From positions 4,278,001-4,342,000 of the forward strand of contig OX637293.1 of the NCBI GenBank assembly GCA_951799445.1: a stretch of DNA of 64,000 nucleotides, given 5' to 3'. The position numbers were made by a program, and so were the translations under genes. This document shows positions 1,957-62,940 of the stretch, one piece after another (position 1 is the first letter of the stretch; the number at the start of each line of letters is the position of its first letter). Under the pieces are notes generated by a model that was given only the letters and a program-made list of their open reading frames with translations, did no database searches and was not told where the DNA came from. Origin of the DNA: Pseudisothecium myosuroides. Its lineage: Eukaryota; Streptophyta; Bryopsida; Hypnales; Lembophyllaceae.

Positions 1957-2851
1957 CATTAGAGGAGATTTGGGCCTCTAAGAGACTGCGAGTTCCTGGA
2001 CTATGGGAACTCTGCAAGAATGCTGAGACGCTGCCAAATCATCGGTCTGACATGGCCAAGCGACTGCCGTGTCAGATTTTTTTTTTTTGAATTTTTTTGA
2101 ATTTTTTTTTAGTATTCTTTTAACATTTTAATAACTTTTTTTTCTTTTTTTTTCTTTTTCAAATTTCCTCGACGAGTATTAATTTTCAGACTAATATTTG
2201 TATACAAGAGTGCAAGTTTTAATAACCCAAAAAAGGGTTAGATTGTAAAATTAAAAAACAATCTTTTTTCAAAATCTAGGATGCGTACATCCTTAATAGA
2301 GAAAAAAGAGCTATTTTATGATGCCTCAAAATTTTAAAAAAAAACACCCTTCCACCCTTACAAAGATCTTTTAAGGAAGAAAGATTATTTTGTTTGGTTT
2401 GGTTGATCTCAAGCTATCACGAGCTAAAAACCAACAAAATGATAACTCAGCTGGAAGATTCAGATTCAAATTAAAAAATTCCAACCTCCCATCCTGCTTA
2501 ATTTCTCATAGGCAATGGGTCTATTTAGCTATTTAATTAGCTATATATACATTTTTCCTTGTGGTTGAGTTTTAGCTTTCATAAGCTAAAATCAACAGTA
2601 AGGAAGTTCTCACAGTAGAAATGAAATCAAACTAGTTGATACGATGGTTTTAATGACGATCAAGCCAGATCATACGTACATATAGCATGGTTAATAACCA
2701 TCTAGACAAGCTTCAAGTAGTTGAACTGGTGTTTTAACTTTGAGGTTACGGTATGCAGACTGGCTCAATGAACGTTAGGTGTGGTGCTTCCATACTAATG
2801 GAGCCCTCAAATGATAATTAAATGATAAAATAAATTACCAAGTATAACAGT

Positions 2852-3115
2852 CTAAGAGACTGTCTGGCCATTGATGTAAGGTCCCTGAATGTCTCTGTTC
2901 ATCAGGTCCAATTTTGCTGATGAAAGCAACTCAATCCCGATTGGCTCCATTGAACTGAGTCTGGTGCATGATTGAAGGCTAGTCGTTCTTTCCAAAGTTA
3001 GTTGTTGGAAGACTTGGAAGCTACTGTTTGAACTACCGGAGAACGAGTGGTTTGGCTTAACTGCTGAGGGAATCTCAAGCGACTGATTAGTGCACATACT
3101 GAGGGTGTTTTGCAA
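2852..3115 (-). CDS. Small conserved antisense ORF in the terminal repeat, unknown
   Basis: An 87-codon minus-strand frame rich in Ser, Gln and Leu. The same ORF is intact in the right terminal repeat at 25353-25616 with only two amino-acid differences (Ala to Thr, Asn to Asp). Intactness in both copies could simply reflect the low divergence of the repeats. No motif, signal peptide or membrane segment is evident. It is antisense to the presumed element transcript. It could be a real small gene or chance. Confidence 0.2.
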   Translation of the reverse strand: MQNTLSMCTNQSLEIPSAVKPNHSFSGSSNSSFQVFQQLTLERTTSLQSCTRLSSMEPIGIELLSSAKLDLMNRDIQGPYINGQTVS

Positions 3116-3131
3116 GTTGTTTTACTGCAAA

Positions 3132-3167
3132 ATGGCATCATCGCAATCTAACAACGTTCCTTCTCAG
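3132..3167 (+). other. Possible first coding exon with splice donor inside the terminal repeat
   Basis: ATG at 3132 opens a 12-codon stretch (MASSQSNNVPSQ) ending CAG at a GT dinucleotide, which fits a plant splice donor. The in-frame reading stops soon afterwards (TGGTTG then TAA). The right repeat has the same arrangement at 25633. It could be the leader exon of the element's Gag ORF, as an initiator in the terminal repeat spliced to the interior. This is inference only. Confidence 0.2.
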
Positions 3168-4032
3168 GTTTCTTTACTTTGGTGGTTGTAAATATATGTG
3201 TTTTATGGTATCTAAGATGTTTTTTGTGTGAAAGCTATAACACGCGCCATGGGTTGAAGACACCTAATGTATCCTCATTGACATTCAATTTGTTGTCATG
3301 TCTTTGGGATGGGTACAGGTGAGGCCCACGACCTTTCAAGAGCATTTTGGATACTTTACAAATATTTTCAACCTCTAGTTGTTTCACTTTTGGTCCATTT
3401 TGCAAACTTTTGACTATGTTTAAGTATTTTGAGTTATATTAAAAAAATCTGGATATAGTTCCAATAAGCTTTCTTGTCATTTGTAGACTTGTGATTGAAG
3501 CCTTGGAAAATATTAAATGGTGTTATGATATGACACACAAGCTAGTCTTACATGATGTGTTGTAAAACATATCGTGATGTTTGTAAAATCTTTTGCCTTG
3601 ATAAAGATAGATTTTATGGAGCCTAGTAACAATAATTATGCAGTGACTTGATGCGTCAAAAGAATGGCTGGAAACTAATGTGATCTGATTATGGTAAAAT
3701 GGAGAATAGACAAAATCTTGTTAAGCAATTTCTTGGATATGAGGAGAGTTAGATAAGTACTTAGTATAGCTGGGATGTGCTAGATATAAGGATTTTTTTT
3801 TCATATGGACAGAACCTAGTAAATGGTTTTGCTCTATATGGATATGGCCATGGAAAGTGCTTTGTCACTAACATCAAACTCCATATTAAACTGGACGTCC
3901 CTACTGCCAATGACAGAAGGGAGAAACATCCACATGAAATGTGGAATGTTTATCGTCCATATTTGAGATGTGCCTGCCATCCTAAGTCTAACACATGCTG
4001 CCTTTATCTGGTAGGACCATGCTTGTTGGTAC

Positions 4033-4602
4033 ATGGTGAACCATCTGGAAAAAATTTTTACTGATGAAAGTTTTCCAACCTTAAAAGCTAAGTTCATTGC
4101 CTTCTTGATCTGGATGCAAAGTGTGGGATACATGGCAATAAGATGCCAAATTGCCTTTGGTTTCTCACGCACTTGGATGTGCAGTGCTGCACTTCAGTTT
4201 GCAGCAAATTTAAATGGTAGGATTCTTGGTGATCTACCGGACCTACCGGGCCCTAGGAAGATTGAGAGGCTGCTTAAACCAGCGGCTTTTTCTATAGCCA
4301 ATCCTGGGACTACCAGTACGCGCCACCAACAAAAAAAGCAGAAGATTAATTTGAATGCTCCTCTGCCAAGCAATCGACAGATTAATTCTGGAGGCTACAA
4401 TGGACGGGGACGTGGAATGCAAGCACAAGGGAGAGGGAATGGTGGTCAAGGGGGTGCCAACCTCCATCAACAATATTCTGCACTTGTACAAAATGTCTCA
4501 CCTTTTCAATATTTCCCCTCCACTCTTAGAATGGAGCACCTTGCAGTATTTGCGAACAGTGATGGAGGTGGAACCAACTCGGCCTCAAATAAATCAAATT
4601 GA
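4033..4602 (+). pseudogene. Gag-like ORF of the retroelement, RGG-rich C-terminus
   Basis: This 189-codon frame begins inside a longer coding region. Residues about 10-80 are hydrophobic and aromatic (segments such as FIAFLIWMQSVGYMAI and FGFSRTWMCSAALQF). Then comes a proline-rich stretch (LPDLPGPRKIERLL) and a basic, Gly/Arg-rich region from about residue 115 (GGYNGRGRGMQAQGRGNGGQ), typical of RNA-binding tails in Gag-type nucleocapsids. No CCHC zinc knuckle is visible. It lies directly upstream of the reverse transcriptase frame and in a different frame, so expression would need frameshifting, splicing or a separate start. The true N-terminus is probably upstream, possibly by splicing from 3132. 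Gag identity is inferred from position and composition. Confidence 0.45.
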
Positions 4603-6607
4603 ACCAGCAGCTCAATCACCATCTTGGAGATGCCGAGTTCTCCTATTCAAAGCAGATTCTTTAGCTTTGCTGATAACTAGCTACTTTATTAAGTATGGAC
4701 CTCTTACTTTTGCTGATTGGATATAGTGGTTGTGCAATAGAGATCCAGAAGATCTTATCCATCGATCAGTTGGGTCGATCTATTCTTTGCAAAAGTAATT
4801 CAAAAAAATCAATTGGATATATAATACTTACGTACCTATGCTGTTCTTTGGAATGGATTCAAATTCACAAATTGTTTGCTGATTGTTTGAGCAAGTTTTG
4901 TTTGGAACACGAGATTCCTTCCCTTGCAGAGATTACATTTGCATGAAAATATCACAATAATATCGCTTTGGCATTCTACAGGCCTATGGAAGTCTTCAAG
5001 AAATTCTCATTTATTCATCTTCTTGACATCAATGACCAGTGTGTATGTCTTAGAGCTAAATTCTTGGCTAAATTTCTGGATGTGCAAACTAGTTTGGAAG
5101 GGGCACGCTATATACCACCACAAGTACATGTGCGCACTGTGGACGTGAACCTGATTTTGAATCGGGAGCTAGAGCAAGCTGTTTCAATGGGATTAAACCA
5201 TATTCCACTAAAATCCACAAAAATCGCAGTATGTGTTGCAACTATCCTTGTCGCATTTTCGCAACTTATCATGATTCTCGATTTGGAAACAAAGGGATTA
5301 CCAATAGCTGTCGCCATAGAGTAGGTGAGATCGTCATACTTGAAACAGCTTAAATTAGCTTCCAAAGCAAATAATGCGGGTCTACGATTCTTAGACCATG
5401 ACTTATTCATGCAACCGCAAGTCAAAGATGAAATTAATTGGATCACATCGAACCTCTACTGTTCAGGACTTGACAAAACCTCGAACAACATATGCTTCAT
5501 ATATATCAAGCATATTTGCTTATTAGCCTTAGATCGACTCTCTAGCCAGGACTTTGTTCCATGCAGAGATGATGCCAGATGGCTGTTTCCCACTAGGGAA
5601 CTTGAGCAGGTGGCAAAATAGATTTTGAAAATAATTTCATAGCTACAAACTTCATACTTGTCGTTACCATATATCATGCCGACCTTTAAACTGCATAAAA
5701 ATAAGTATCGCTAGCTCACAAATGCCTTCCAAATGATTTTCTCGAATCTGGCCCATATATTGACAATTGCTACAATGTTAATACTTGAGCAAGTGAAAGA
5801 TTGGGCAAGTTCCATAGCAGAAGAATATAAAAAATTTCTACGATTCAACACCTCCCTATACTGGTTGGTAAATTCATCGATAGAACTAGCGCTTAATCTA
5901 CCCCAAAAGATTCATGATATCTTTTTGGCGGATATAACCTATTGTTATGAAACAATCCCATTGACTGGCCGGGATAATCTGAGTGATGTTATCGCACGCA
6001 TCATCATCAAAATTGGCTTTAAGTAAGACCGCATAGCTCATCCGCGCTCGAATCCATCTATCTAGATAAGAGTTGATTCTGAAGGCAAAGCTGCTAGAGC
6101 CACTTGGAGTTCCACCTGTCCTGCATACGGGTCATGGTTCTCATTGTCGGAAGCCAAACTGATAGAATTACACCAGTGGCTGATGATTAATTGTTACGTG
6201 GCCCTAGGAGATAGAGTCTAAAAATAAAAACTTGGTATACCTATGGGATTCTTGTGCTCGCCCTTATGGTGTAATATCTACTTGCTACATAACGAAATCT
6301 CATTTATCCAACGTTTAGCTAAACTTGGTCAAGTGGACCTACTCGAAAAATTTCAATTTGCTTTAAGGTTCATCGATAATTTTTGTTGAATTAATGCTAG
6401 CCAACCAATAGAATTCCTAGTGCCAGAACAAGAACAATTGCAAACTAACCCGTATTGGATATATTCTCTTAATGTGCTGGAAATTAAACTAGAGGTATCC
6501 AAATATTCAGATCTGGACCCTGTGAGAGGCATCCACGCTCACTTTATGAATTTGGAGATCAAAGTCTCCAAATTTGATTCATCAAAATACACCACGTGTA
6601 AGTTTGA
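4600..6607 (+). pseudogene. Reverse transcriptase, N-terminal two thirds, truncated by CACTA insertion
   Basis: Codes in one frame to about 4880, then after an apparent frameshift in a second frame that runs from about 4880 to 6607 with amino-acid continuity but stops at 5322, 5619, 5640, 5712, 6024, 6063, 6219, 6225 and 6387. RT-like blocks are seen in order: a PTFKLHKNKYR block near 5680-5711; an ETIPLTG segment near 5953; GIPMGF at 6234-6251 followed by CSPLWCNIYLL (the primer-grip-side block with PMG and SP residues); and FIDN at 6369-6380 where a YIDD-type catalytic box is expected. Several stops sit where a Trp or Gln would fit the family. The frame is cut at 6607 by the CACTA element and resumes at 10138. 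Upstream sequence (4600-5600) is a long N-terminal extension of unknown function. The enzyme is surely inactive. Confidence 0.6.
6605..6607. repeat. Left TSD (TGA) of CACTA element 1
   Basis: TGA precedes CACTAG at 6608 and is repeated at 10135-10137. Joining the flanks with a single TGA restores a Lys-Phe-Asp-Lys-Arg-Arg reading across the site, which fixes both boundaries. Confidence 0.85.
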
Positions 6608-6829
6608 CACTAGAAGAAACCCGTGTTTTCGCAGATAGTCGATTCTGGACAGGCTGACGTCTATGACGGTGTCCAATTTCGTCACCCGGGACGTCAATTT
6701 TTTCGCGTTACGGTTGACACGCAAAAAACATCGAAAATCTGAGATAACATGGCCTGATGTCTGAATGATTTTTTAAGACATTACAGAGAACATGGGCCAA
6801 CGGGGTCTTCAAAGGCCGTCATGTAGCTG

Positions 6830-6970
6830 CCACCTAAGCGCCACGCATGCACGGGCAGCCACGTAGGAAAATTTTCATCCAATTTTGTCCATGACGTGGC
6901 ATCTGAGGTGGCACCGGAAAAAATGACGTGGCATCCAGCAAGGATGACGTGGCATGCCACGTCAACATAG
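6830..6970. promoter_or_regulatory. Left subterminal repeats of CACTA 1 (TGACGTGGCA type)
   Basis: Repeated words around TGACGTGGCA and GCCACGT occur at spacings of 20-40 bp, mirrored at the right end (9655-9755). In the En/Spm system such subterminal arrays bind TNPA. The ACGT core is also the bZIP recognition core. The binding role here is inference. Confidence 0.55.
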
Positions 6971-6999
6971 TTTTCTGTTGTCTACAAATTTTAATATTG

Positions 7000-7150
7000 T
7001 TTTTGGAGACATCAACTTAGACGTCTAGATGTTTTCTGAGACGTCAACTCTGACATCCACACGTTTTTTGAGATGTTAAATTTGACGTCTACATATCTTG
7101 TGACATCAATGTAGACGTCTGCATTTCACTATGAATACCTCTTGCAATGC
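7000..7150. repeat. GACGTC-rich array inside CACTA 1
   Basis: Repeated AGACGTC, GACATC and TGACGTC words every 15-30 bp, often followed by TAGA or TCT. Related words recur densely at 8390-9610. They look like degenerate tandem units rather than coding sequence. Confidence 0.5.
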
Positions 7151-7284
7151 TTAGGATGATTTAGGGGAACATAATGATGTCATGTTAGACGTTTATGTGA
7201 TTGAATGTATTATTTGGCATGATATTAATATGGACAGTCACACGTATCTAGGTATCCTACATGACATTCATGTGCATTTCACAA

Positions 7285-7400
7285 TGTCCAATACAACATG
7301 CCATACACCGTACACCATACACAATACCTCGTACACAGTACACCATACATAATATACAATACACCATACAAAATATGCCATACAAAATACACCATATTTG
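7285..7400. repeat. CATACACC minisatellite
   Basis: Degenerate tandem of about 10-bp units around TACACCATACA and CATACAAAATA. It creates the Tyr/Val/Cys-rich 76-codon minus ORF at 7268-7498, which is therefore a repeat artefact. Confidence 0.6.
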
Positions 7401-8389
7401 TAAACTATATCACATGGCTTTATAAGCCACCTGATGTGAGTATATAGAGGGAAGAAGATAGGCTCTTTATACAAGTAGGGTGGTAGGAGGGAAGACAAAC
7501 CGTATGGGATATGTAAAACACGTGAATTAAATTTCTATGGAGCAACACCCAGACGTCCGGCAGGACGTCCAAAGGCTAAAGTGGGTTGTCTACTTCTATG
7601 TTCCTCCAAAGATTATCAAAGATTTCATAGAAATACTAGGAGACAATGTTGTGTTGGAAGATGAAGCTTAGCACCTGTTGGTCCTATATATTTCAATGCA
7701 CCAATACACAGATGTCCGAGAGGACGTCTGCAAGATACAATGGGTTGTCTGCATGTATGTCTCTCAAGGCGTACTAGTATCTGCCAAATAGTGATGGGGG
7801 AGGTCTCAAAGCATACCAATGTCTTTTAAACATTTAGGGGAGGAGGAAGGCACGGGTTCTCTATGTAGAGCAAGACAGGCATGTCACATTGTTGCCATAT
7901 TTAGAATTGCTTACATAGATTTGATCGTCGATATTTTAAATTGTCCTGAAAATCGCCCTACCTAGGATGTTGTCATTAGAATCATGGCAGGGACAGTGCA
8001 ACTCAGTTTTTATCTCTGGAGACTATAGTGAATACCTTGTTTGAACCTTTCTTCCTCTTCTATATTCATATGCCGTTCTACGTTTATGTGTATTGTCCAA
8101 ATTGACTAAAAGACATCTTCTGCTAAGATTGAAGAAGAGAGTACCAATGATTACCTACGTTTGTGGTATTTGTCGCCGTATATGGCATATAACACAGAAG
8201 CTGTACGTGACGAATGATGATGTTTTGGAAGGCAGGGCATGAGGTCATATCCTAGAAAGGATATGTAATAAGACGCCTCTATTTCTTGCTGAATGTCTTA
8301 ACTCTCAAAAAATGTACTAACACACACAAGATAGAAGGTTACATTCAAATGCAAATATATCCAATCTTGATCCAAGTTGCATCTCTAAA

Positions 8390-9610
8390 AATGTCCTTAG
8401 GTCTCCATAGACGTCTTTGGAGACATTCTGTTGTCTCTAATAATATCTCCAAAATCATCTACATGTTTTGGAGAACATCTCAAAAAATATCCACGAACAT
8501 CATTATAATATATGTTGGTATGATCCTAAATGTCATGGGCTACTTTTTCCAAGACTGCAATCATGTCTGTCATCTTCTTGCATAAATAGTGAAGAGAGAA
8601 ATGTATTGTCTTTTGAAAAAGCAAACAAACATAGTAAGATATACCATCATTAATTTGTGACCTCATAAAAAAGAAAAAAAGACGAAGACCTCAAAGTTGA
8701 AATGTAGCGTCCCTTTGAATACTTGTACTAATTCTAAGGTATAAAATAAAGACCAGTCTTCTCTGCAAGAATTGAAGTTAGATATTCCATTGCCTAGGCA
8801 AACTCATGAAGCAGAATCATTTCTTCAGTCTTGTTTCCATGAGTTTACAATTCATGTTAGTAAAATGTTAAGAAATACGAAATTGTCTACCACTCACTTT
8901 ACAACATCAATTTTGAGTGTTGGAAACAATGTATTTCCTTAATAAGGTTCAAGAAGGTAATGGGATTCCCATATCTATATGAAGTTTGCTAGCAATACAC
9001 ATTGGATTGATCCTATACATTGCAATTGAAAGATGAAAAATTAATACATCACTTGTGCACATGACGCTATAAGAAAACAACATTTGATTTCATTGCTAGA
9101 TTTTGCATCTTGATGTCTTGTCTGATGTCTTCAAATGTCTACAAACATCCAAAATTTTGCGTTGCCTAAGATGTGCCATATACATCAAAAATCCGTGATG
9201 GAAGTTGATCTTATTGAAAGCATGGTTTTTGATCATGTCCTAGATTGTTGGACATCTAAGACGACGCCCTCATTTGCTCGTTGAACTTCCAAAGAATGTA
9301 CTTAAACGCATAAGGTACAAAATCACATTGAAATGCAAATGTATCCCATCTTAGTCGAAGTTGTGTCTTTTGAAACGTCCTCAAGTCTCCATAGATGTCT
9401 CCATAAACATTTTGCCGTCTTTGACTACGTTTCCAAATATATCGTCACGTCTCAGGCAACATTTTGGTAGACATCTTGACAATTCGTACAATGTCTCTAC
9501 GTCTCCATAGATGTCTCCATAAACATTTTACCGTCTCTCCAAATACATCGTCACATCTCAGGCGACGTCTTGGTAGACATCTCAACGTTTCATACGACGT
9601 CTCCATGTTT
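8390..9610. repeat. GACGTCT/GATGTCT-rich interior of CACTA 1
   Basis: Dense repetition of words such as ACGTCTCCATAGATGTCTCC (seen twice near 9385 and 9497) and AGACATCT across more than 1 kb, with no coding frame. It is partly a tandem duplication: the CTCCATAAACATTTT block is present at about 9400 and 9512. Confidence 0.5.
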
Positions 9611-9654
9611 CTATAGACATCTCTGAAATAAGCATAAATACCTACAATGCAACC

Positions 9655-9755
9655 CTCCTATGTTGACATGGCATGCCACGTCAGCATTATTCAATGCCAC
9701 GTCAGTCAATTTCCACGTGGCATGCCACGTCATCTGCCACATCATCAAAAAAAAT
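9655..9755. promoter_or_regulatory. Right subterminal repeats of CACTA 1
   Basis: Words GGCATGCCACGTCA, TGCCACGTCA and CCACGTGGCATGCCACGTCA are packed within 100 bp in inverse orientation to the left-end set. The arrangement matches a transposase-binding subterminal region. The small ORFs called here are artefacts of these repeats. Confidence 0.55.
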
Positions 9756-10137
9756 TCCAAAGACTGCCCCATGACTGCCCGGTCTTCTTTTTTTACCTTG
9801 GACAAATGTTTTATCCAAAATTGCAATAATTTTTGGACAATTACTCGCAGTGAAAATGGGTCAACAAAGCTGACGTGGCTCTCGATGTTTTTGCTGACAA
9901 TCTTGAGGACATCAGCTCGTCATCAAATATGTCATCAAAAACCTTGACGTCAATGGTAACACCAATTTGTTTTTATTGAAATTTGCCGATGTCATGTGAA
10001 ACATCTTTGGAATTCTATCCTAAACCGCAATCTGTCTCTCAGACATCTTGATGTCCCTGCGGACACCGTATGTTTTGCCTTGGACATTGCATGTTTTGAT
10101 CTAACATCAAAAAAAACACGGGTTTCTTCTAGAGTGA

Positions 10138-10376
10138 TAAACGAAGAGCTCTGCCATTTACTTACACCCAGTATATTAAATTCCAATCTAATAGGCCCAT
10201 AAAACAATCATACAACATTGCTATATCACAAAGTGTGTCTATCTTATACTTGTCAAGTTCAGTAGAAGCGGCCAATATGGAGATTCAAACGTTGATCGAA
10301 ACACTGGTTGCTAATGAGTTCTATGAATCACGAATTAGAAAGACTATCACTAGCTTCCTCAACAAGAGCTCATTTC
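10138..10376 (+). pseudogene. Reverse transcriptase, middle fragment between CACTA and copia insertions
   Basis: This 239-bp segment continues the RT frame from 6607. The reading is open with no stops: a KRRALPFTYTQYIKF block, then NRPIKQSYNIAISQSV, then ILYLSSSVEAA, ending in FLNKSSF at the copia target site. It would correspond to the region downstream of the catalytic box (thumb side). The absence of stops here, against nine in the upstream part, is partly chance on a short segment. Confidence 0.6.
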
Positions 10377-10546
10377 TGTTGTTACAATCGTAGATTAGGT
10401 TTTCATCCTACTGGTACATTCATCCAGTCTACCTTAAAATCCAATTAGGTTATCTCTCTCTGTACAAATACCAGAGCTTCTGGCCTCCAATCTCATCTTA
10501 CTAACAATCAATCCTTTGAGTGTGCTTCTCATTGCTTATGTCAATA
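10377..10546 (+). repeat. Copia 5' LTR
   Basis: 170 bp starting TGTTGTTACAATCG and ending TATGTCAATA next to the primer binding site. Very short for an LTR, near the lower range for copia. It aligns gap-free with the 3' LTR. Confidence 0.9.
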
Positions 10547-10558
10547 TGGTATCAGAGT
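10547..10558 (+). promoter_or_regulatory. Copia primer binding site
   Basis: TGGTATCAGAGT immediately follows the LTR. It matches the complement of the 3' end of initiator tRNA-Met (TGGTATCAGAGC in plants) with one difference, and is the usual primer for plant copia elements. Confidence 0.85.
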
Positions 10559-10713
10559 AGGATAGATCTTCCAGTTAAGTCTAGATACTAAGAGATTAAG
10601 TTTTTTTTTTAAACAACAGCATCATGTAGACTCAGAGAATACCTTACCTCGAGAGTAGTCAGCGCCAATATTAGCCATAACTCGTGCCGCCACCCTCCAG
10701 ATCTAGATCAGCG

Positions 10714-11590
10714 ATGGATCCCAGTATTAGAGAAGTTCCAGAGACCATGAAACTTGCAGGACCATCTAACTATGCAATCTGGAGCTATAAGGTAAAGATG
10801 ATCGTCCTTCAGGAAGGATTGTAGCACTTCATTGAACCTGTCGAATTTGTTGTGGAACATTCCGACACCGCGACTTCAACCCCCACCGTCGTGACAACTG
10901 AAACTCCGACCAGATCTTCTTCGGCAACAGGCGACATCAAAGGAGCGCTCCACCACGCTGCCGCACCTACTGCACCTGCATCAAATCTACCACCAGTAGC
11001 AGTCAACACAGAGACAAACAAGGAGAAAGAACTTCGTTTCAGAGCAGGAAGAATCATCACCTATCTAGTACAAGACTCCATTATCCTCTCTATTATTCAT
11101 TTTATAAATCCTTTTACAATCTGGCAGAGACTTCACACTATATGTGAAGTACGCAGCTCTTCTAGAAGACTCTCTCTTAAAGCGTAGTTCTATTCTCTGA
11201 AGTTGAGAGAAGGCAAAAGTATAGCAGAACACTTACAAGACATCAATGCACTAGTGACCCAACTCGCTAGCCTAGGGATAGGAATCTCATACAAAGATTT
11301 AGTTGATACAACCCTAAACAGCCTACCTAAGTCTTGGGCAACCTTCAAAGCCATCTAAAAGGGTTGCGAACGCACAGCCTCCTTTCCCACGGCCCCAACA
11401 ACAATCTCAAGTCCACCTTGCTGAAGTTGAAGATGATTACTCCTTTGACTACTAGTCTAACTACCAGTCTGACTCACCTCCAAATGAAGCTCAGGCTTGC
11501 ATCGACTTCTTTCTCGAAGACCCAAATCCTGATTCCAAAAACATTCTCGCTTGCTTCACCGCGACTCCAACAGAAGTCAACTGGTTCTTA
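10714..11590 (+). pseudogene. Copia Gag, degenerate
   Basis: ATG at 10714 starts a frame reading MDPSIREVPETMKLAGPSNY then AIWSYKVKM, the familiar start of plant copia Gag (a 'L.G.NY..W...M' pattern). A TAG at 10822 interrupts where Trp is typical. The frame continues to about 11187 through an inserted Thr/Ala/Pro-rich stretch, then shifts frame toward protease. I see no CCHC zinc knuckle, so either it is lost or this lineage lacks it. It forms virus-like particles with the genomic RNA in active relatives. This copy is inactive. Confidence 0.75.
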
Positions 11591-13034
11591 GACTCTGGAG
11601 CCTCTTCACATGTGACGGGAAATTCCAACCTCCTTAAGGATTTAGCACCATTTAGCATTCCTAGTATTCGCACAACAGGAAGTCAAGTAATGCATGTAGA
11701 ATCTCAAGGGACTGTACACATTTCTACTCCATCAGAAGCAATAAAAAGCATCCGCCGAGTTCTCTATGTCCTTGGTGTTCGCACAAATCTCCTATCAATG
11801 GGAAAAATTATAGACGCTGGATACAAAGTTCTATTTGATTCAACTCAGTGACACATCTCTGACAAAGATCAGTCTACTGGCTTTTTTCTCACTGCAATTA
11901 GAGATTCCCAAAATACTCTATACCGTGTCAAATGACACGACATTCACTTCATTCTAGCTACCCGACCCTCAATGTTAAAACCATCACCACTTACTATTGA
12001 GCTGTCCCAAATTCAATCGTCCAACCCTATCATATCATCTCCCGTAGCACTAGAGACACAAAATCTCTTGCCACCCTATTCTCAGCCCCTATCATGCCCT
12101 TCAGACGAGGAGATCAAATTGTGTCATCAACGACTCGGCCATTTTCACTACCAAGGCATCTATCACATGACCACCAAAAATCTCGTAGCCGGCATCCCTC
12201 CATTACCGTTACTCAAATACATTTGCAATTCTTGTATGATGGGTAAACTACCTAGAGACAAAATACCAAAGAAGATAACCACTAAGACTACCCACACCCT
12301 CCAACTCATCCATACAGATCTTTGTGGCCCGATGCTCGTAGCCTCCTGAGATGGCAGTTGTTATATTCTCACCTTCATCAATGATTTTTCGCGCAAAACC
12401 TGGTTGTACTTCCTATCAGAAAAATCAAAAACACTAGACAGCTTCAAAACCTTCTGTGCATTAGTGGAAACTTCCAACCACAAAATAGACACCATTCATA
12501 GTGATAGGGGAGGGGAATACACATCCCAAGCCTTCATCTCATACTGTAACTCCCATGGCATCCATCGTCAATTAAACGCCGGATACTCACCACACCAAAA
12601 TGGCCTAGCAGAGAGAAAAAATAGAACGCTATTAGAGGGCATTAGGAGTGTAGTTACAGATACACAAATTTCAAAAACCCTCTGGCATGAAATTGCTAAA
12701 ACTATAAACTATTTACACAATAGATATCCTACCTGAGCTCTCAAACTCATGACACCAGAAGAAGCCTACACAGGCATCAGACCAAACTTAGGGCATCTTA
12801 AAGTCATCGGTTGTTTGGCATATTGTCACATACTTGACAATGAGCGCCAAAAGTTTGATCCAAAAGTTGTCGCCACCATCCTTCTCGGATATGACAAACA
12901 CAACAAAGCATATCGTTGCTACAACCCCACTACACAAAAAATCATAGTGAGCCGCGACGTCAGATTTGATGAGACAATCCTTAAACTTCCAAATCCTGAA
13001 ACCACTGAACCACTAGAGGACCCTTCCTTTCTAT
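11575..13034 (+). pseudogene. Copia protease and integrase, stop-riddled single frame
   Basis: One frame carries the aspartic protease motif WFLDSGASSHVTG near 11580-11620, a GAG-pre-integrase zinc-binding region (LCHQRLGHFHYQGIYHM near 12120, then CNSC near 12220), and the integrase core: IHTDLCGP (first Asp) near 12310, IHSDRGGEY (second Asp) near 12495, and HQNGLAERKNRT (Glu) near 12595. Stops lie at 11849, 11933, 12347 and 12734, all TGA. Some fall where Trp is expected (for example WDGS and YPTWALK contexts). There are no frameshifts. The frame ends at the solo LTR and resumes in phase after it, since 1811 bp of LTR plus 5 bp of TSD shift the numbering exactly as observed. Confidence 0.9.
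13030..13034. repeat. TSD TCTAT of the solo LTR
   Basis: TCTAT at 13030-13034 and again at 14846-14850 flanks a TG...CA unit, a perfect 5-bp duplication. Confidence 0.85.
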
Positions 13035-14845
13035 TGTGGGAACCCAGAAAACAAGATCCTAGTTACTTAGGATAGAATTAGAAGTAAGAAATCCATTCTT
13101 AGTAAATTTTTTTGGTTCTATGAGATAGAAATAGAGAAATTACTGAGTTTATCTATTAGTAGAATGTAGGATATCTTAGTAGGATAAAAAGGTTAAGGAG
13201 GAAAATTCATTTTTCGTCCTAAACCAAAAATCGGAAACCGGAAACCGGAATTAGGACGAGGTGACACGTGCTACCAAAGCCTCATCAAGTGGAAGCACCT
13301 CCTAAGCGGCTGAAGAAGACTTAGCTGCAGTTATTTCAGAAAAGGAAGTAGGTAGGCGGAGAAAACTAAAAGTCATTTGATTTAGGAAGTTACTTTCAAG
13401 TTGCTTTTAATTAGGAGGAACTTGGACACCCAGATCCGGATTTCTAGGATCTGAAATTCACTTTTTGTGGGTGGGACTAGAAGTAAATAGGAAGTTTCTT
13501 AGGATAGATTTAGACCAGTCGGGCTATAACCGAAGTTTTGGATAAGTAGGAAGCTATTAGCCAGCTGATTTTCAGCTGGATGCAACTGGACTTCACTTTC
13601 CGGGTTTTTAGGATCTGAGATCCGCTTTTTGCGGATCGGCTGGGTTGGTAGGAAGTCAACTTAGATGGATAAGGAATGACGCGTGTCATTCTTAGGTCCT
13701 TCATTTTGGATTGTTGGGGACCTTTAGGGTTTCCCTTGGATTGTTATTTAGGGGTTGGAAGTTAGTTTCAACTCCGGGCGTTTTCATATTCTTGTTTCCC
13801 TATTCAATTTCTGCAAAGAAAGCTTGGATTTCAACTCCATGAGTACTGGTCTGAAAAGTCTTGGTCTTGTGTTGAGGGGTTAGGCGGTGTTTTGATCATT
13901 GCTAGTTCAGGTAGTTTGGTAGTGAAGATTTGAGGAGAGGAGTCGTTCCCGGATTTTGTCCAGATCCGCATCCGAGAATATTGAAGATTGGTTCTGTAAA
14001 CTTTGTGTACTTGGAGGAAATTCTATCTGTTGATGTTTCTTAGGAGTCTTCTGAGCGAGATAGCCATTCCTAGGTTAGGTGAGTCCTTGAGAGGAAGGGC
14101 AAACGCTAGTTGACGTCTGAGAGGTCTTGCTGTAACCGGAAGAGAGGAACTGGAAGGTTGGAGGAATCTCCTAATTAGCAAGGTACCACGTACTCCTCTT
14201 TGGATTGCGTCCGGATTGGTCTGTCATTGTAGTAACGTGGGGATTGTAGGGGTTTCTTGAGTGACCTGCTGGCGCGGATTAGTTTTCGGGTTAGTTGTGA
14301 GGAAGAACTTGCGTCCCATTCTTTTTCAGTCTTTTTATTATTTTCTTTTAGTGAAGTCTTCAGTCACTTTAATCATCTGGAGGGTAGAATTTACGCGTCC
14401 TTCTTTAATCTAAGAGCGGACCCCTCCGTATACGAGGTTAAACTTCTACTATCTGTTACTAAGGATACAGGGTACGGATCTGGATTTGGAAGGGGAACAG
14501 GATTATGACACTCCTTCTGATTCCGCATCCACACTACTGGGTGATAAGTTGTTAATCTGGATAGGGAGAGGCACAGGATAATGACACTCCTCCATGTCTG
14601 GTGAAGTAGTGTGAAATTGTATGGGTTGGAAGAGAGAGTATTTTAGAAGTAAGGGTGCTTAAGAGGCAATATCCGGGTTTCAGTTCCGGATTCCTGTTGT
14701 CTTGGGTTTTGGATTTCCTAATCCTAATCTGAATATATTGAAGAAACTACGGTAAAATCCTTTGGGAACGATATACAGGTCATCTTGGGTGTTTTGGCAA
14801 TTAAAACGCCTAAAGGTAGGATTTGTGCTTCCTTGTGCTACGACA
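13035..14845. mobile_element. Solo LTR (1.8 kb) nested in the copia
   Basis: Begins TGTGGGAACCCAG and ends CTACGACA, with 5-bp TSDs. It contains no coding domain; the 64-, 83- and similar-codon ORFs inside have no family. Composition is less AT-rich than its host. Removing it with one TSD restores the copia reading ...EDPSFLSSLSS... in frame. It is the product of LTR-LTR recombination of a longer element; which superfamily cannot be told from an LTR alone. Its orientation is not determined. Confidence 0.85.
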
Positions 14846-14850
14846 TCTAT

Positions 14851-16196
14851 CTAGTCTATCCTCTCTCAACATTCAAACCTCAATCCCAGCCATACCACAC
14901 ACTACAGTGATACCCACACCCCTACCATTCCAGTCATTTCAGACACCACCCGAAAACTTAGAGCCCCACCCCCCTCACTTGTCCACTCCTTCTCCCACCT
15001 CGTCCAATTCCTCTCCTGAACCTACTCCACCACCTGCCACCGCCCAAAACCCAACCTCCACCCAACTAAAACCCCGCCGCTCAGAGCGCCCTCGTCGCCA
15101 GAACATACGCCTGGATGGCTATGAACTGTGTCTGTCCCTCTAGGACTTCAACATCTGCCTCATCACAGGATCTCGCTCCAAACCTTCTCCAATACCTGCA
15201 CCAAACGAACAAGATCACGACCGCATTACCTTTAAGACGGCCCAACAAGATCCCGGCTGGCGATTGGCGATGTAGGAGGAAATGAACTCCATCTAGAAGA
15301 ACAAGACCTGGAGCCTTGAACCCCTTCCCCCTGACAAGAAAGCCATTTCCTGCAAATGGTTTTTTAAATTGAAACTTGGCATCAATGGAGGACCAACAAT
15401 AAAAAAAGCAAGACTTGTAGCACGGGGATTTGAACAAAAACAAGGCATTGATTTTAAAGAGACATTTGTACCTGTGTACAACATATGCGTCAAGTGGGCT
15501 ACCATCCGCACTGCAATCGCACTTGCCGCTGCAAAATGGTGGAATATCCACCACATGGATGTCAAGACCGCCTTCTTGCACGGACTACTAAAAGAAAAAA
15601 ATTTCATGTGTCAGCCACCTGGGTTTTGCAAAAATGGCTATGAAAACATGGTATGCCGCCTTCACAAGTCCTTGTACGAACTCAAACAGAGTCCTCGTGC
15701 TTGGTATGAGCGTATTGACGCCTCCCTTCGTAGCATCGGCCTGCAAAGAAGCAAATCAGACGCCAACATGTACTATATGCATTTAGAGGGGAATACACTC
15801 ATTCTAATGCTATATGTTGATTACCTATTCATCACTGGCAGCTCAGATAAACTCATCCAATGGCTCAAACAATTTCTCCACAAGGAATATGACATGATAG
15901 ACTTAAGCTACATCAAACGCTACCTCGGCATTACCTTTGAGCAAACGCTCCTCGATATCTTCCTGCACCAAAGGGACTACACGAAATCAATATTACAAGA
16001 ATGTGGAATGATTGAATGCAAATTGGCTACAGCATCCTTACCTGAAGGTCAAATTCTGATCACAAACATCGATTCTTCTCCAATTGATACAACGTACTAC
16101 GGTCGGCTCATTGGCAAGCTCATATTTCTCACAATAATTCACCCAGACATTGCATACTCCGTCAGCTGTCTCAGCTGCTACATGTCGGCACCATAG
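14851..16196 (+). pseudogene. Copia reverse transcriptase with integrase C-terminal linker
   Basis: The frame continues from the integrase through a Pro/Ser/Thr-rich linker (14870-15100, ending in a basic RRSERPRRQN segment), then the RT domain: KNKTWSLEPLP and CKWFFKLK near 15297-15370, ARLVARGFEQKQGIDF near 15412, MDVKTAFLHG near 15557, LYELKQSPRAWY near 15675, and the catalytic box near 15811 reading LYVDYLF, so the second catalytic Asp of YVDD is Tyr. Stops at 15141, 15273, 15294 and 16194 are all TAG. Trp or Gln are the usual residues at several of them. Inactive copy. Confidence 0.9.
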
Positions 16197-17009
16197 CAAG
16201 GTCATCTTGAAGCTGTAAAACACCTGTTACGCTACCTGCAGGGTACACTAGATTTCGGAATACATTATCAAGCCGGAACACCTATCAAGATATCAGACTA
16301 CACAAATGCCGACTAGGGATCGTGCCCCGAAACCCGCCGCTCCATAGGCGCATATGTGTTCACGCTGGCAAGTGCACCTATAACCTGGCAATCAAAGAAA
16401 CAATTGACAGTCTCTCAATCAAGCACAGAATCCGAGTACAGGGCCTTGAGTGACGGTGCCCAGGAAGCTGTGTGGCTCAACTGACTCTTCCAAGAGCTTC
16501 AACCTTATACAAAACCTGCCTGTACACAAGACACAACTGACTGCTCCATCAATTCCAGCATTACCATCTACTGCAACAATCAAGGAGCAATGAAACTTGC
16601 TCACAATCCAGTATTCCACGCTCAATCCAAACACATCGAGATACACTACCATTTTGTACGGGAACAAGTCCTGGAAGGGAAAATCAAATTGGAATATATT
16701 TCCACCGCTGATCAGCTAGCGGATGTGCTTACAAAGCCGTTAGGCCGCATCAAATTTGCCCAACACGGGGAAACCCTAAGGCTATGCAACCTTATCAACC
16801 TTACGCTACAACTGACCTCTTCCACACCAGCGCATCTTGCTAACTCTGCACTATTTGGATTAGATACTTTTCTACCTGCTCAATCGACGAAAACTTCTTG
16901 TGCTCCGCCCCAGAGAAACCGGTCACTTCTCTTGCACAATCCGGCCACAAAAATACAAGCCTGGCCTCCGACCACGTCTCATTGCGTAGAACCGATGCTT
17001 CACCGATGA
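16197..17009 (+). pseudogene. Copia RNase H and 3' region
   Basis: Same frame as the RT. RNase H blocks follow: SDYTNAD then a TAG at 16314, RRSIGAYVFTLASAPITWQS, SSTESEYRAL near 16425, a TGA at 16482, then YCNNQGAMKLAHNP, HAQSKHIEIHYHFVRE and ADQLADVLTKPL near 16710-16740, which is the conserved copia C-terminus. The remainder to 17009 is an unconserved tail. Confidence 0.9.
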
Positions 17010-17375
17010 TGCTGTTGGAATTTTGCGCGCACTGCTCTAACTCTTCCTCGACACCAACTTGTCACTCTCACTCGGCGCTCTCCCAACTCCAAGACCAGCA
17101 CAGACACAACGCTTCGATTGCACCGGTGCCTCGTCAACCTTGACAAAATCCTCTTCACGATCTTGTCCCACGTGCTAGTACTCCACAATTTCACAAACCG
17201 ACTCCAGTAATCGAGCAACAAACACCACACTCAACCAAAATAAGACCCCAGCAAAGCTCACAATCAAAATCCCTTAAATCGACTCACGGATCCTATAAAT
17301 CCGTTGGCCCATGATCTACACCATCCCCAAATCGTTGTACAGATAGTATACATACAGAAAACCCCAATCTCTCGA

Positions 17376-17386
17376 TTGAGAGGGGG
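17376..17386 (+). promoter_or_regulatory. Copia polypurine tract
   Basis: TTGAGAGGGGG directly abuts the 3' LTR start and is the expected plus-strand primer site. Confidence 0.75.
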
Positions 17387-17556
17387 TGTTGTTACAATTG
17401 TAGATTAGATTTTCATCCTACTAGTACTTTCATCCAGTCCACCTTAACATCCAATTAGGTTATCTCTCTTTATACAAATACCAAAGCTTCTGGCCTCTAA
17501 TCTCATTTGACTAACAATCAATCCTTTGAGTGTGCTTCTCATTGCTTATGTCAATA
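17387..17556 (+). repeat. Copia 3' LTR
   Basis: 170 bp, colinear with the 5' LTR, about 12 differences (about 7 percent), nine of them transitions. Followed by GTTTC, the degraded TSD partner of ATTTC at 10372-10376. Confidence 0.9.
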
Positions 17557-17561
17557 GTTTC

Positions 17562-17680
17562 CAGGCTTGAAGTTTGACAGCCAACAGTTATGCAATATGC
17601 TCAGGTTTTATTATCATACCTTGGACCTAAAGGTGTTATTTACTGGAAAAAAGGAAGTTTGCTCTACAATACATGATTGA
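17562..17680 (+). pseudogene. Reverse transcriptase, C-terminal fragment of the outer retroelement
   Basis: Continues the frame broken by the copia: PGLKFDSQQLCNMLRFYYHT, then about 18 further codons and TGA at 17678. No endonuclease, integrase or RNase H domain follows before the right terminal repeat begins near 17797, so the ORF ends soon after the RT. A GC-rich purine stretch (GGGGCGGAGGCGGGC near 17759) precedes the repeat and could be a priming tract. That is speculative. Confidence 0.55.
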
Positions 17681-18933
17681 TTTAGAGCACAAGATGCCTG
17701 GTATGCCCCCTCAGTAAGAGGCTACACCAGGTATTCATATTGAGGGTTCGCACTTCTAGGGGCGGAGGCGGGCTTTTTCCTTTTTTTTTTTTTTCTTTTC
17801 CAGATTTCCACGTCAAGTACTAATTTTTAGACTAATACTTGTATACAAGAGTGCAAGTTTTAATAACCCAAAAAAGGGTTAGATTGTAAAATTAAAAAAT
17901 AATCTTTTTTCAAAATCTAGGATGCGTACATCCTTAATAGAGAAAAAAGAGCTATTTTATGATGCCTCAAAATTTTAAAAAAAAACACCCTTCCACCCTT
18001 ACAAAGATCTTTTAAGGAAGAAAGATTATTTTGTTTGGTTTGGTTGATCTCAAGCTATCACGAGCTAAAAACCAACAAAATGATAACTCAGCTGGAAGAT
18101 TCAGATTCAAATTAAAAAATTCCAACCTCCCATCCTGCTTAATTTCTCATAGGCAATGGGTCTATTTAGCTATTTAATTAGCTATATATACATTTTTCCT
18201 TGTGGTTGAGTTTTAGCTTTCATAAGCTAAAATCAACAGTAAGGAAGTTCTCACAGTAGAAATGAAATCAAACCAGTTGATACGATGGTTTTAATGACGA
18301 TCAAGCCAGATCATACGTCCATATAGCATGGTTAATAACCATCTAGACAAGCTTCAGGCAGGGATTTTTTTTTCAATTTCCGTAGGCAGTATGGGTCGCA
18401 ATACTTTGTGATGGAGAAGGGGCTTCATATGCTAATTTGATTTGGAAAGGTATAAATAATTAGCGAAATCAGTTTTTTTTGTTGCTCTGTGGCGATTTGG
18501 AATTTGAGATGATATTAAAAATTTGCGATTTTAATTTTTTTTTGGAAGCCAAATGTGCAACACACATCAAAAAAATTTTACATATTGAAAATCGATGTAA
18601 CTAGAAAATCAATAGCAAAAATTATGAATTGATATTATAAGTGTAAACATTGAATGTAACACCCTTAATTGAGAAGACAATTTCAACATGAATGCCAAAT
18701 AACTAAATCAACCAATTTCATAATAATCCTAAAGTCAATCAATGTAACCCAAAACTCATCAAATTTTATTGTATAACTCATATATAAGCATTACATATCA
18801 AATCATTCAAACATGCAAAGTAAACAAAAAACATAATTAAAACTCAAATTCATCAAATCTCCATTTATATTGCTTGTAACCATACCTTTCTAACCACCGT
18901 AGTAACCAACACTAATTTCCAAAACAAAAAGAC

Positions 18934-19060
18934 TTAAAACTTCATCAAGCAAACACTTGATATCTTCCATGCTTAGTCTTGGCATTCCTCCAAGAAAGTG
19001 TAAAACTTCATCAGGTATGCACTTGATATCTTCCACGCTTAATTTTGGCGTTCCTCCAAT
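18934..19060. repeat. Two-copy tandem duplication at the transposase 3' end
   Basis: A unit of about 65 bp (TAAAACTTCATCA... CACTTGATATCTTCCA... GGCATTCCTCCAA) occurs at about 18935 and 19001 with a few differences. It duplicates the last transposase codons. Confidence 0.6.
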
Positions 19061-21649
19061 CTGAGACTGCTTCTTTGAATGGCATTGTATGCAAAGTTTA
19101 ATGCTTTTGTGCAAACATCGTAGTCACTAACCCAAGATGATCAGTCAGCCGATTCCTCAATTTGCTTTTCAAAAAACTTACATTTGAGAAAGTTCTTTCA
19201 TCTTCAACGCTCCCTAAAACCTACATATGAAACCAAAATAGACATTAGCTTAGAAACTATAGGTAATTTGTAAATCATAATCAAAAGAATATTTTTTGAT
19301 AATAATACCATAAATTACAAAAATAAACTATAAACCATGTTGAAAACACAACTAACAAAATTCATACATCAACATATAAATTGAATTTACCATGATCATA
19401 GCAAGCTCAGCTAGCTTCAAGAACTCAGGGAAAACGGTTGGCAGCATAGGGGAGGAACTTAAACTCCGCCAAAGCTTGGTGATAGGATGAATATGGAGGT
19501 CAATTCCCCGCATTGCCCCAACGCTGCAATTAGCCATGGAAATACGGAAGCAGTCAAGCTGTTTATTTAGAGCACCAGGAGAAACAAGTTCACGAACCCA
19601 CTCAAACCGGCTTGGTGCAACTTCCATTTCCTTTGGCTCCCCAAATGTTTGCTTGATGACTCCTAGGTGCCGGTGCAAGTCGGTCTCTTCAACTTTGCCC
19701 ATCCAAAATTGGGGATACACTATGGAAAGACCATCCATAATGTGAGAACTCGGAAAACGCCCTTCCAATTCAAAGATCATCTTTGTAGCAGCCTCTGTAC
19801 AACACAAGTTCAAGTAACATGTATAAGATGCATTTACAAAGCAATTGAATAGTTCAATAGAACTTTACACCTAAAGAAATAAAAAATAAAAAATGAATTT
19901 AAAAGTAGAGTTGGAAGAATCAAACCTTCAGCCTCCTTCTTCACTGCCACCTATATACTTGATCCCATAGATTGTGAGTGACCCACTCTCTTGTGTTGGT
20001 GCTCGAGTTCATGCAGTATGCATTCAAATGCGTTCCAGCCCGAGTGGCAGCATGAGCTTCAAAAACAAGCACTTCTTCACCTTCCTCATTCAAATCAGGG
20101 TGCCAACGAAGTTTGATATCATCATGTCGCATTTCGCAGAGGGAGTTAAATGAGGAAAAGACATCAGACTTGAAGGTAGTATCAACTCCAATGTAATGCA
20201 TATGAATGTCCTCAAAACAGAGCTTCAATGCCCTAGTGAAATCACAAACATACATCAAAGGAAACTGAGCAAATTTATTGAGGTCATTCACTATCTGGAG
20301 GAGTGGAAGCACAATAGCAAGGGACAAAAGAGTCTTCACGTCCGCCAAGAGATTATAATTTGCAATTGCCCCCTTCAATTCAAGTTTCACAAATCAATCG
20401 CCATAAATCTTCACAAGCAGCACTCGATACTCGGACAACACCCGTTTTATTGGTTTGAGCATACTGATCCAACCCGTTTTGACATTATTCAATATTTTTC
20501 CTCCTTTTGATTTTAATAGCTCCGCCATTTTCTCCAACTCCAAATGACACTTAGTGCTGGAGGAAAAATATAAGTATAATTTTTCCAAGAGTTTTTCGAT
20601 CGAGGAGATGATGTCAAGGTCTGATAGCACCTCAACAACAAGATTTGTCCGGTGAGCAGCACAATGCATGCCCTACATGTGCAGGGCATGATCGAATTGA
20701 AACTGCCTCACAACGCCCTTGTGTTTTCCTTGCAAAACTGAAGCCCCATCACATACAAAGCAAACAAGTTTGGATCGAACTTCATGCACAGTAAGTCCTC
20801 CATCGCAAATAATGGCAACTAAAACCACCTTGGTTACGTTGTCTGCATTCAATCCATTCGTTAGCTGCTCCAAACTGAGTAGAAGAGGGATCCGCTCCCA
20901 GTTGCAAAGTACATATCCGTGAATGCTGATCCAGCTTTGATTATCGACTATAGTTACTTTGTCACAACTAATAGACATGAAGTTCCTACCACTGAACACC
21001 TCCTTTGTCTTATTTTGAACTACGTTGTATAAACTCTCTGCCATTCCCCAGCCTGAAGAGTCACTCCAATGTTGCATTCGTATTCAACAATCAGACGCCC
21101 AAAGGAAAGCAAATGAAATATAACAGCCATTTGAACCTCCTTCCTCTTTGGCGGAGCACCTTGAGCCACCCTTGTTTGAATGTTCTCAACGGGCAATGAC
21201 AAATATATATGTTCAATCTTCTTGTGTTTGCAATCGTTATTCCACCACGTGTCGCTTTTTTTCTTGTTAATCTTTGATCTATCACGTGAAGCAGTCGTCC
21301 ACCCTTGGTGCATGTAGGTTGTCATCTTTTGCATCCAAAAGAACGTCATGACCCTCCACTCTACTACACATGATGCATTTCACCTTTTCAAAGTTTAGGG
21401 TCTCACTTGGATCCTGCATAGCCCAGTGATACTTGAGGGTCCATTTGTCTTGGTATCCACGCCTGCTATCCAAAAATTACAATAGTATTAAAGAACAAGT
21501 GATGTCAATGTGGAATGACAATATTGATTTCAACAATAGCTATCACATGTAGCACAACACTTGAATCAGGACTTTACACCAAAAAGAAATTCATGAACCA
21601 AACTTTTGTCCATTGTAGATTAGAATTAACGGTTAGCAATGTCCAAATT

Positions 21650-21850
21650 ATGTACACTTGAGGAGGTGCATGATTTTAGCCTCCTATGTCATTTCTACTT
21701 CAAAAATTTGTAATTAATTCCACAAAACTCCAAAAAATATGAAATGACTTGGATTAGATGTCAGTTTTAATTTTTTTTCAAGAATATATTTCAAGAAGAG
21801 TTAGAACACTTACATGGGCGCTTCATGGACCTCCTACCACACATCTATCT
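21650..21850. repeat. Fragment of repeat family R in the hAT intron
   Basis: Shares extended similarity with 34137-34360 in the same orientation: AATTCCACAAA, CCAAAAAATATGAAA, TTAGATGTCA, and CATGGACCTCCTACC against TATGGACCTCCTACC. A dispersed repeat of unknown type. Confidence 0.55.
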
Positions 21851-23483: not shown

Positions 23484-23486
23484 TTA

Positions 23487-44735: not shown

Positions 44736-45161
44736 TTGGATTTCTTGTCCGGGCTTGGTCAAAGTTCATTAGATTTCTACATTAAAATATACATTTCAAA
44801 ATTTTCATATTTTTCGTTGGTAGTAATATATGCCTTAAATTTAATCTCATTTTTTCATAATTAAAAATACCAAATTGAATTTTGTACTTTTAAAATTTTT
44901 TTTTTGTGAAAATCATGCTTTAAACAGTATGAATTTTTTAATAAAAATGGAAATAATAGTAACAAACATTATGGGGTAGTTGATGTACTTTTTAGGCTCA
45001 CACCAAGAGAAATTTGATAGAGAAAGTTCAAAAAAAGTGTATTTTGAGCTTTCATGATGCTATCTTCAAAGTGTCATGAAAATTAAAAATTTAGCAATTT
45101 TGTAAAAAAATAAAATGGTATAAAAAGTACATCATTGGAACTACGTTTTTTTAGTTAAGCT
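44736..45161. other. AT-rich spacer, no gene seen
   Basis: Nothing recognisable. Confidence 0.45.
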
Positions 45162-45165
45162 TTAA

Positions 45166-46084: not shown

Positions 46085-46088
46085 TTAA

Positions 46089-54800: not shown

Positions 54801-54908
54801 CCAAGTCTACCCGGGTCAGTGAGGCAGGGTTACTCCCCGGAGCCTTAACTCAACCAGGGTAAACCGTAGCTCATGTAGGATTCATTAGGGGCAACTCAAA
54901 GGCCAGCA

Positions 54909-62937: not shown

Positions 62938-62940
62938 TGA

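What the first reader, a model, noticed from the sequence alone, without database searches (positions are those of the whole stretch)
2155..17796. Retroelement with 1.65-kb direct terminal repeats but an RT outside the Ty1/Ty3 pattern and no visible integrase
The rebuilt interior is only about 3.3 kb, with a Gag-like RGG ORF and an RT whose blocks (PTFKLHK, GIPMGF-CSPLWCN, FIDN for YIDD) look closer to Penelope-like or telomerase-like RTs than to LTR elements. No protease, integrase, RNase H or GIY-YIG was seen, although the flanking repeats look like LTRs. The combination of a Gag-like ORF, long direct terminal repeats and an endonuclease-free RT does not fit a class I know. This is the best candidate for an undescribed system.
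Basis: partly seen in the sequence, partly recalled or inferred. Interest (0 to 1): 0.8.

Follow-up and report, generated by a model that had tools for sequence, protein, structure and literature searches.

The report
Telomerase-like retroelement with LTR-like ends
This plant genome carries a large family of mobile elements that seem to copy themselves with a telomerase-like reverse transcriptase but end in long identical repeats like retrovirus-type elements, with no recognised cutting or joining enzyme, and the stretch in the window is a decayed, interrupted copy of one.

Summary
At ~2136-26303 lies a decayed copy of a retroelement split by three later insertions (CACTA-like, Ty1/copia, hAT-like). 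Its 1.66-kb direct repeats, ORF1 (RGG tail) and RT belong to a large family: 138 RT homologues at E <= 10 in the protein collection, and at least 69 RT matches in the host's own 388-Mb genome, 33 near full length, 21 of those open. The four copies inspected at both ends are R-interior-R (6.6-7.3 kb). R (1.24-1.58 kb) is identical or nearly so within a copy but differs between copies, so the ends are remade at each cycle. A G-rich tract marks the 5' edge of the 3' R, next to a covarying RNA element. ORF2 follows a conserved in-phase 3' splice site (29 of 29 loci) that joins ORF1's leader in frame (4 of 4). The predicted RT fold matches telomerase best. No GIY-YIG, integrase, protease or RNase H domain was found, and no TSD signal in 8 insertions. 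Closest known kind: endonuclease-free two-ORF Penelope-like elements. The LTR-like ends and predicted splice switch look like a new variant; how the ends are remade is inferred.

The parts
2136..3802 (+). 5' terminal direct repeat (R1) of the outer element; starts with a pyrimidine tract (exact start uncertain within the T run), ends GGATTTTTTTTTC; not TG..CA
   Evidence: (alignment with 17781-18356 and 25211-26303); counterparts in complete copies
3804..4677 (+). ORF1 remnant (residue ~244 to the C-terminus of a ~540-aa protein; frame change near 4000); RGG tail; N-terminal ~243 codons absent
   Evidence: (P0130 244-537), homologues
4726..4740 (+). predicted 3' splice site of ORF2 (GTGCAATAG^AGATCC, exon from 4741), in phase with ORF2
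   Evidence: window copy = locus L033
4741..6607 (+). ORF2 part 1: TERT/PLE-like reverse transcriptase, N-terminal and palm regions, 10 stop codons in frame
6608..10134 (.). CACTA-like insertion in ORF2: ends CACTAGAAG / CTTCTAGAG, 3-bp duplication TGA (6605-6607, 10135-10137). Named from its ends (motif recalled); no transposase was searched for
10135..10376 (+). ORF2 part 2 (KRRALPF...LNKSSF, homologous to P0004 617-696)
10377..17556 (+). nested Ty1/copia retrotransposon: LTRs 10377-10546 and 17387-17556, primer site TGGTATCAGAG at 10547 (recalled motif), integrase and RVT_2 domains
17557..17605 (+). ORF2 part 3: C-terminus of the RT (short, weak match)
   Evidence: P0002 701-716, E 0.021; P0004 696-707, E 0.056
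17696..17745 (+). 3' UTR RNA element: two covarying overlapping helices (pseudoknot or alternative hairpins)
17758..17773 (+). G-rich polypurine-tract-like sequence AGGGGCGGAGGCGGGC directly before the 3' repeat
17774..18358 (+). 3' terminal repeat (R2), first part (18351-18358 = GCTTCAGG duplication)
18359..25210 (-). hAT-like insertion in R2 (ends CAGGGATTTTTTTTT / complement CAGCGATTTTTTTTT, 8-bp duplication; class recalled from these); two of its minus-strand ORFs scanned, no Pfam family above cut-off
25211..26303 (+). 3' terminal repeat (R2), second part (25211-25218 = second copy of GCTTCAGG)

Best explanation
The window holds a dead copy of an endonuclease-free retroelement on the Penelope/telomerase side of the RT world, with LTR-like ends. 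SHOWN by sequence: the four copies inspected at both ends are R-interior-R with 1.24-1.58-kb direct repeats that are identical or nearly so within a copy; ORF1 (~500 aa, RGG tail) is followed by ORF2 (~700-aa RT); a covarying RNA element and a G-rich tract precede the 3' R; solo Rs with the same boundaries occur. INFERRED mechanism: (1) an RNA that starts and ends in the repeats is made; (2) unspliced RNA gives ORF1, while splicing from a donor at about codon 45 of ORF1 to an acceptor just before ORF2 fuses a short leader to the RT and removes the rest of ORF1; (3) ORF1 coats the RNA and the RT binds the 3' RNA element through its telomerase-type RNA-binding domain; (4) reverse transcription remakes both repeats from one source at each cycle, the 5' edge of R being set at the G-rich tract, by plus-strand priming as at a polypurine tract or by RT stop or template switch there; (5) the cDNA enters existing breaks, often at A/T runs, by annealing or end joining, without an endonuclease or integrase of its own and without a fixed target-site duplication.
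Confidence: 0.68

Rival explanations
1. An ordinary endonuclease-free Penelope-like element whose repeats are pseudo-LTRs: they arise because copies or transcripts stand in (partial) tandem and target-primed reverse transcription copies slightly more than one unit. Nothing LTR-like happens at the G-rich tract beyond RT stalling.
For: PLEs have pLTRs from tandem or partial-tandem copies (passages); EN(-) PLEs have two ORFs, measure 4-6 kb, and occur in Selaginella and conifers. A G-rich, possibly G4-forming tract could stop RT and give solo Rs of exact length. 5'-truncation and tandem arrays are reported for the telomeric members, and the window copy's interior does lack its 5' part.
Against: 9 of 9 close R copies reach within 14 nt of the 5' edge; repeats are 1.2-1.6 kb and homogenised within each copy; no telomeric repeats at the window copy's junctions; Rfam found no hammerhead ribozyme in the window or ten loci. 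Inverted repeat pieces, common in PLEs, were not searched for.
Confidence: 0.35
2. A true LTR retrotransposon lineage that lost its own pol, captured a foreign RT, and is integrated in trans by Ty1/copia or Ty3 integrase of the same genome.
For: Identical long terminal repeats, solo repeats, polypurine-like tract before the 3' repeat.
Against: Repeats are not TG..CA, no tRNA primer site recognised, no fixed TSD; ORF1 matches no Gag family in Pfam.
Confidence: 0.06
3. A chance collage: nested insertions of unrelated elements in the window that only look like one element.
For: The window copy is interrupted three times and its right repeat is split.
Against: Complete R-ORF1-ORF2-R copies exist elsewhere in the genome; ORF1 and RT appear to share contigs in other assemblies (P0131/P0006, P0129/P0016, P0143/P0082, inferred from equal contig length and source).
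Confidence: 0.01

Closest known systems
Endonuclease-deficient Penelope-like elements, EN(-) PLE (Athena of rotifers; those of Selaginella, Pinus taeda, Picea abies; Coprina, recalled)
   Same: Telomerase-related RT without GIY-YIG; two ORFs; present in land plants (passages). The original description (Gladyshev and Arkhipova 2007) is not held.
   Different: Here: copies dispersed on contigs C1-C10, 1.2-1.6-kb homogenised terminal repeats, G-rich tract at the repeat edge, predicted splice-coupled ORF2, no telomeric repeats at the window copy's ends. Whether described EN(-) PLEs of plants share these features could not be checked.
Canonical Penelope/Poseidon PLEs, plant Dryads
   Same: KLHK-type RT blocks (recalled), pLTR-ORF-pLTR layout.
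   Different: They carry a C-terminal GIY-YIG endonuclease; the pLTRs quoted for rotifers are about 0.2 kb, with inverted pieces and 5'-truncations.
Telomerase reverse transcriptase (TERT)
   Same: Predicted fold matches across RNA-binding domain, RT and C-terminal extension.
   Different: Multicopy, mobile, with ORF1 and terminal repeats; the host has a separate TERT locus, the only PF12009 match.
LTR retrotransposons (Ty1/copia, Ty3)
   Same: Identical long terminal repeats, solo repeats, purine-rich tract before the 3' repeat, Gag-like ORF1.
   Different: Different RT; no protease, integrase or RNase H found; no TG..CA; no tRNA primer site recognised; no fixed TSD.

Membership tests
EN(-) Penelope-like elements | RT specifically related to telomerase/PLE | tested here: inconclusive
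   Fold: telomerases rank first. Sequence: no significant profile match. No tree with named PLEs was built.
EN(-) Penelope-like elements | no GIY-YIG endonuclease, two ORFs, about 4-6 kb | tested here: met
   Pfam scans of 25 RT and 12 ORF1 proteins find no nuclease; one unit (R plus interior) is 5.4-5.7 kb with ORF1 and ORF2.
EN(-) Penelope-like elements | direct pseudo-LTRs | tested here: met
   Direct repeats at both ends in 4 of 4 copies inspected.
EN(-) Penelope-like elements | 5'-truncated copies in tandem arrays with telomeric repeats | tested here: not met
   9 of 9 close R copies reach within 14 nt of the 5' edge; no telomere repeats at the window copy's junctions. Reported for telomeric members, so it may define only a subgroup.
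Canonical Penelope (EN+) | GIY-YIG domain on the RT protein | tested here: not met
   RVT_1 was the only Pfam family matched by more than one member (23 of 25).
LTR retrotransposon | identical terminal repeats homogenised at each cycle | tested here: met
   (8 of 8 sites separating L010 and L012 agree within each element).
LTR retrotransposon | polypurine tract at the 5' edge of the 3' repeat | tested here: met
   Edge seen in 4 copies and the window; tract plus pyrimidine run in 28 of 28 loci tested of 30. Use as a primer not tested.
LTR retrotransposon | tRNA primer-binding site after the 5' repeat | tested here: inconclusive
   None recognised by eye in two subfamilies.
LTR retrotransposon | protease, integrase, RNase H | tested here: not met
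   no such Pfam match in the RT and ORF1 proteins scanned.
LTR retrotransposon | fixed-length TSD | tested here: not met
   8 insertions, longest matches not above shuffled pairing.
TERT | RNA-binding domain, RT and CTE fold | tested here: met
   model 67-712 aligned to TERT 324-1076; whole-model alignment, domains not searched one by one.
TERT | Pfam Telomerase_RBD; single cellular gene | tested here: not met
   PF12009 finds one other locus only; no member of A1 matches it at E <= 10.

The most novel reading that the evidence does not exclude
A distinct, undescribed order of retroelements: a telomerase-type RT (RNA-binding domain, RT, C-terminal extension) that replicates with LTR-like logic (plus strand started at a polypurine-like tract, both repeats remade from one template), switches between its Gag-like protein and its RT by alternative splicing from a shared leader exon, and inserts without any endonuclease or integrase of its own.
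Probability: 0.33. Interest if true: 0.92.

Novelty: new variant of a known kind. Interest (0 to 1): 0.78.

Why it matters
Telomerase and Penelope-like RTs are thought to share an ancestor, and LTR elements are held to be a separate solution to copying ends. A family that joins a telomerase-type RT with homogenised terminal repeats, a purine-rich tract at the repeat edge and a conserved 3' RNA element bridges the two. It makes testable how an RT without a visible RNase H or integrase can remake terminal repeats, and how telomerase-like enzymes work as mobile elements. It is multicopy with many open frames here, so it can be studied in a living plant. The listed relatives are nearly all unnamed and mostly without Pfam annotation; the two with an organism name are from a moss and a liverwort.

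Tried and rejected
Pfam, NCBIfam and PDB sequence searches with window fragments and family: nothing beyond sub-threshold RVT_1 or group II RT for the RT. IMG/VR scans with P0004 and A1: no relative. Rfam, also at permissive thresholds: no hammerhead or other credible RNA. ORF1 model (pLDDT 66.8): no PDB fold match at E <= 0.001. The viral structure library gave RNA-virus polymerases for the RT, TM 0.23-0.32 (50 of 1274 matches shown). Tree of 90 family members without outgroups: the window copy falls near P0004-P0007.

Considered and dropped: my first reading, that the repeats are merely pseudo-LTRs because the interior is 5'-truncated at the repeat border; the truncation is true of the window copy, but the complete copies have full interiors and identical repeats. 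Also dropped: dating the outer element by its repeats. R1/R2 differ at 22 of 1663, yet the nested copia LTRs differ by 7%; 14 of the 22 mismatches lie in the outer 170 bp (0 of 100000 permutations, the end zones chosen after seeing the sites), so the central repeat was probably homogenised by gene conversion. The RNA-element alignment holds 10 loci and the window; left out were near-duplicates, L019 (insertion) and the more distant L027-L038 types.

Not obtained: GIY-YIG search of the own genome, R search of the L009 subfamily, own-genome ORF1 search (not completed). Key papers on EN(-) PLEs are not held, so novelty against them is untested; the papers cited were seen as passages only. Searches for a prior description.
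Full report
What is in the window. Self-comparison shows one 1.66-kb direct repeat: 2140-3802 equals 17781-18356 plus 25211-26303 at 98-99%. The right copy is split by a 6.85-kb insertion with an 8-bp duplication and hAT-like ends. A CACTA-like element with a TGA duplication interrupts the RT at 6608-10134. A Ty1/copia element with its own LTRs, primer site, integrase and RVT_2 sits at 10377-17556.

A real family. A read-through of one RT piece (stops as X) found 138 proteins with E <= 10, 120 of them listed, best 1.9e-227, full length ~700 aa; the one with an organism name is from the moss Ceratodon purpureus. Relatives carry YIDD and GIPMGFSCSPLWCN-type blocks. ORF1 has its own family of ~500-540 aa with an RGG tail and a conserved C-terminus; the one with an organism name is from the liverwort Riccia sorocarpa. 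Three ORF1/RT pairs share contig length and source, so probably the contig. The window ORF1 lacks about 243 N-terminal residues, cut at the repeat border.

Fold. The model of P0004 (pLDDT 93, pTM 0.87) matches telomerases first in Foldseek and VIA-align, over the RNA-binding, RT and C-terminal regions; group II intron RTs come next over the RT alone, and the weakest telomerase rows tie with them. Sequence profiles are too distant to show this. The host has a separate TERT locus.

Complete copies. The genome holding the window has at least 69 RT matches; by my count of that table 33 span 700 residues or more and 21 of these are open. In the four copies for which both flanks are in hand the layout is R-interior-R: L009, R 1584 bp with no difference, interior 4135 bp; L010, R 1240 bp with no difference, interior 4115 bp; L012 one difference; L011 one or two, by where R is taken to end. 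L010 and L012 differ in both repeats at 8 R sites, and at 8 of 8 the two repeats of an element agree. So the two repeats are remade from one source at each cycle. Searching R of L010 (40 of 147 candidates scored) finds nine copies at 98% or more, all reaching within 14 nt of the 5' edge: six in three elements, three without an RT match nearby; the flanks of two of these confirm solo Rs. Two older copies (85-90%) appear as pieces that add up to about the whole R. Three L009-type Rs (L042-L044) are also solo; L043 and L044 share flanks and count as one insertion.

The edge of R. In 28 of 28 loci tested, of 30 held (L033, cut by the CACTA-like insertion, and L037, with N, left out), a G-rich tract is followed at once by a pyrimidine-rich run. 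In the four copies with both repeats, and in the window, that point is the 5' edge of the 3' R; in the rest the edge itself was not seen. Upstream lies a conserved RNA element. On 11 sequences (10 loci and the window) two helices are supported: 92.5% of cells paired against at most 49% when slid; 5 pairs with changes on both sides (3 of 500 shuffles); covariation 0 of 500; further pair types not above shuffles (93 of 500). The helices overlap as in a pseudoknot, but the connecting loops are short, so they may alternate. Relatedness can inflate such counts.

Splicing. In 29 of 29 loci (L024 left out), an AG after a pyrimidine-containing stretch lies 11-23 nt upstream of the aligned ORF2 start in the same phase; a first rule gave 28 of 29, with 18 distinct contexts. 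The second rule was set after the first, admits TAG for the window copy only, and 6 of the 29 loci also have an AG in another phase nearby. In 23 of 29 no ATG lies between the upstream stop and the aligned start, but in L010-L014 the aligned start is itself ATG. ORF1 has a G^GTGAG donor at codon ~45; joining it to the acceptor reads in frame in 4 of 4 copies, two subfamilies. One database RT of 120, P0008, begins with such a leader (E 2e-10 to P0130). I infer that splicing chooses between ORF1 and a leader-RT protein.

Insertion. Eight insertions show no TSD above shuffled pairing. The window copy has TAATAAC/TAATAGC next to its ends, which may be chance. Flanks are often A/T runs. No nuclease domain was found in the proteins scanned, though ORF1 has no recognised fold and could hide one.

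Comparison. Reviews state that EN(-) PLEs have two ORFs, lack the endonuclease, measure 4-6 kb, and occur in Selaginella and conifers (passages), and that PLE tandems make pseudo-LTRs. The element therefore works and looks most like an EN(-) PLE. What does not fit the accounts I could read is the long homogenised repeats with fixed edges, the purine-rich tract, the lack of truncation in the R copies examined and the predicted splice switch. I file it as a new variant and keep the order-level reading open, because the key papers were not available.

Noticed in passing
2140-3802 versus 17781-18356 and 25211-26303: Mismatches between the two repeats cluster in the outer 170 bp (14 of 22), with the centre nearly identical although the nested copia LTRs differ by 7%: probable gene conversion between the repeats.
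   Followed up: yes
L062 and L042 right flanks: Solo repeats of two different subfamilies sit beside nearly the same sequence (TTGGGTAATTAGG...), so both may have entered the same T-tract of another repeat: possible target preference.
   Followed up: partly
31118-32068 and 45157-46092: 0.95-kb direct repeat (90%) 14 kb apart, perhaps the LTRs of another nested element.
   Followed up: no
37271-38295: Long inverted repeat, 496-nt arms 95% complementary with a 33-nt spacer.
   Followed up: no
52904-56157 and 60386-63881: Two diverged (76-84%) copies of a ~3.3-kb segment, direct orientation; an ORF of 238 aa (59699-60415) beside the second copy matches no Pfam family.
   Followed up: no
13075-15297: The copia element has ~2.2 kb between its integrase and RT parts with a reversed GC skew at 13-14 kb, possibly a further insertion.
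   Followed up: no
L069 (C6:24472203-24472655): Host TERT gene (Telomerase_RBD, E 3.3e-32), the only such match in the genome.
   Followed up: partly
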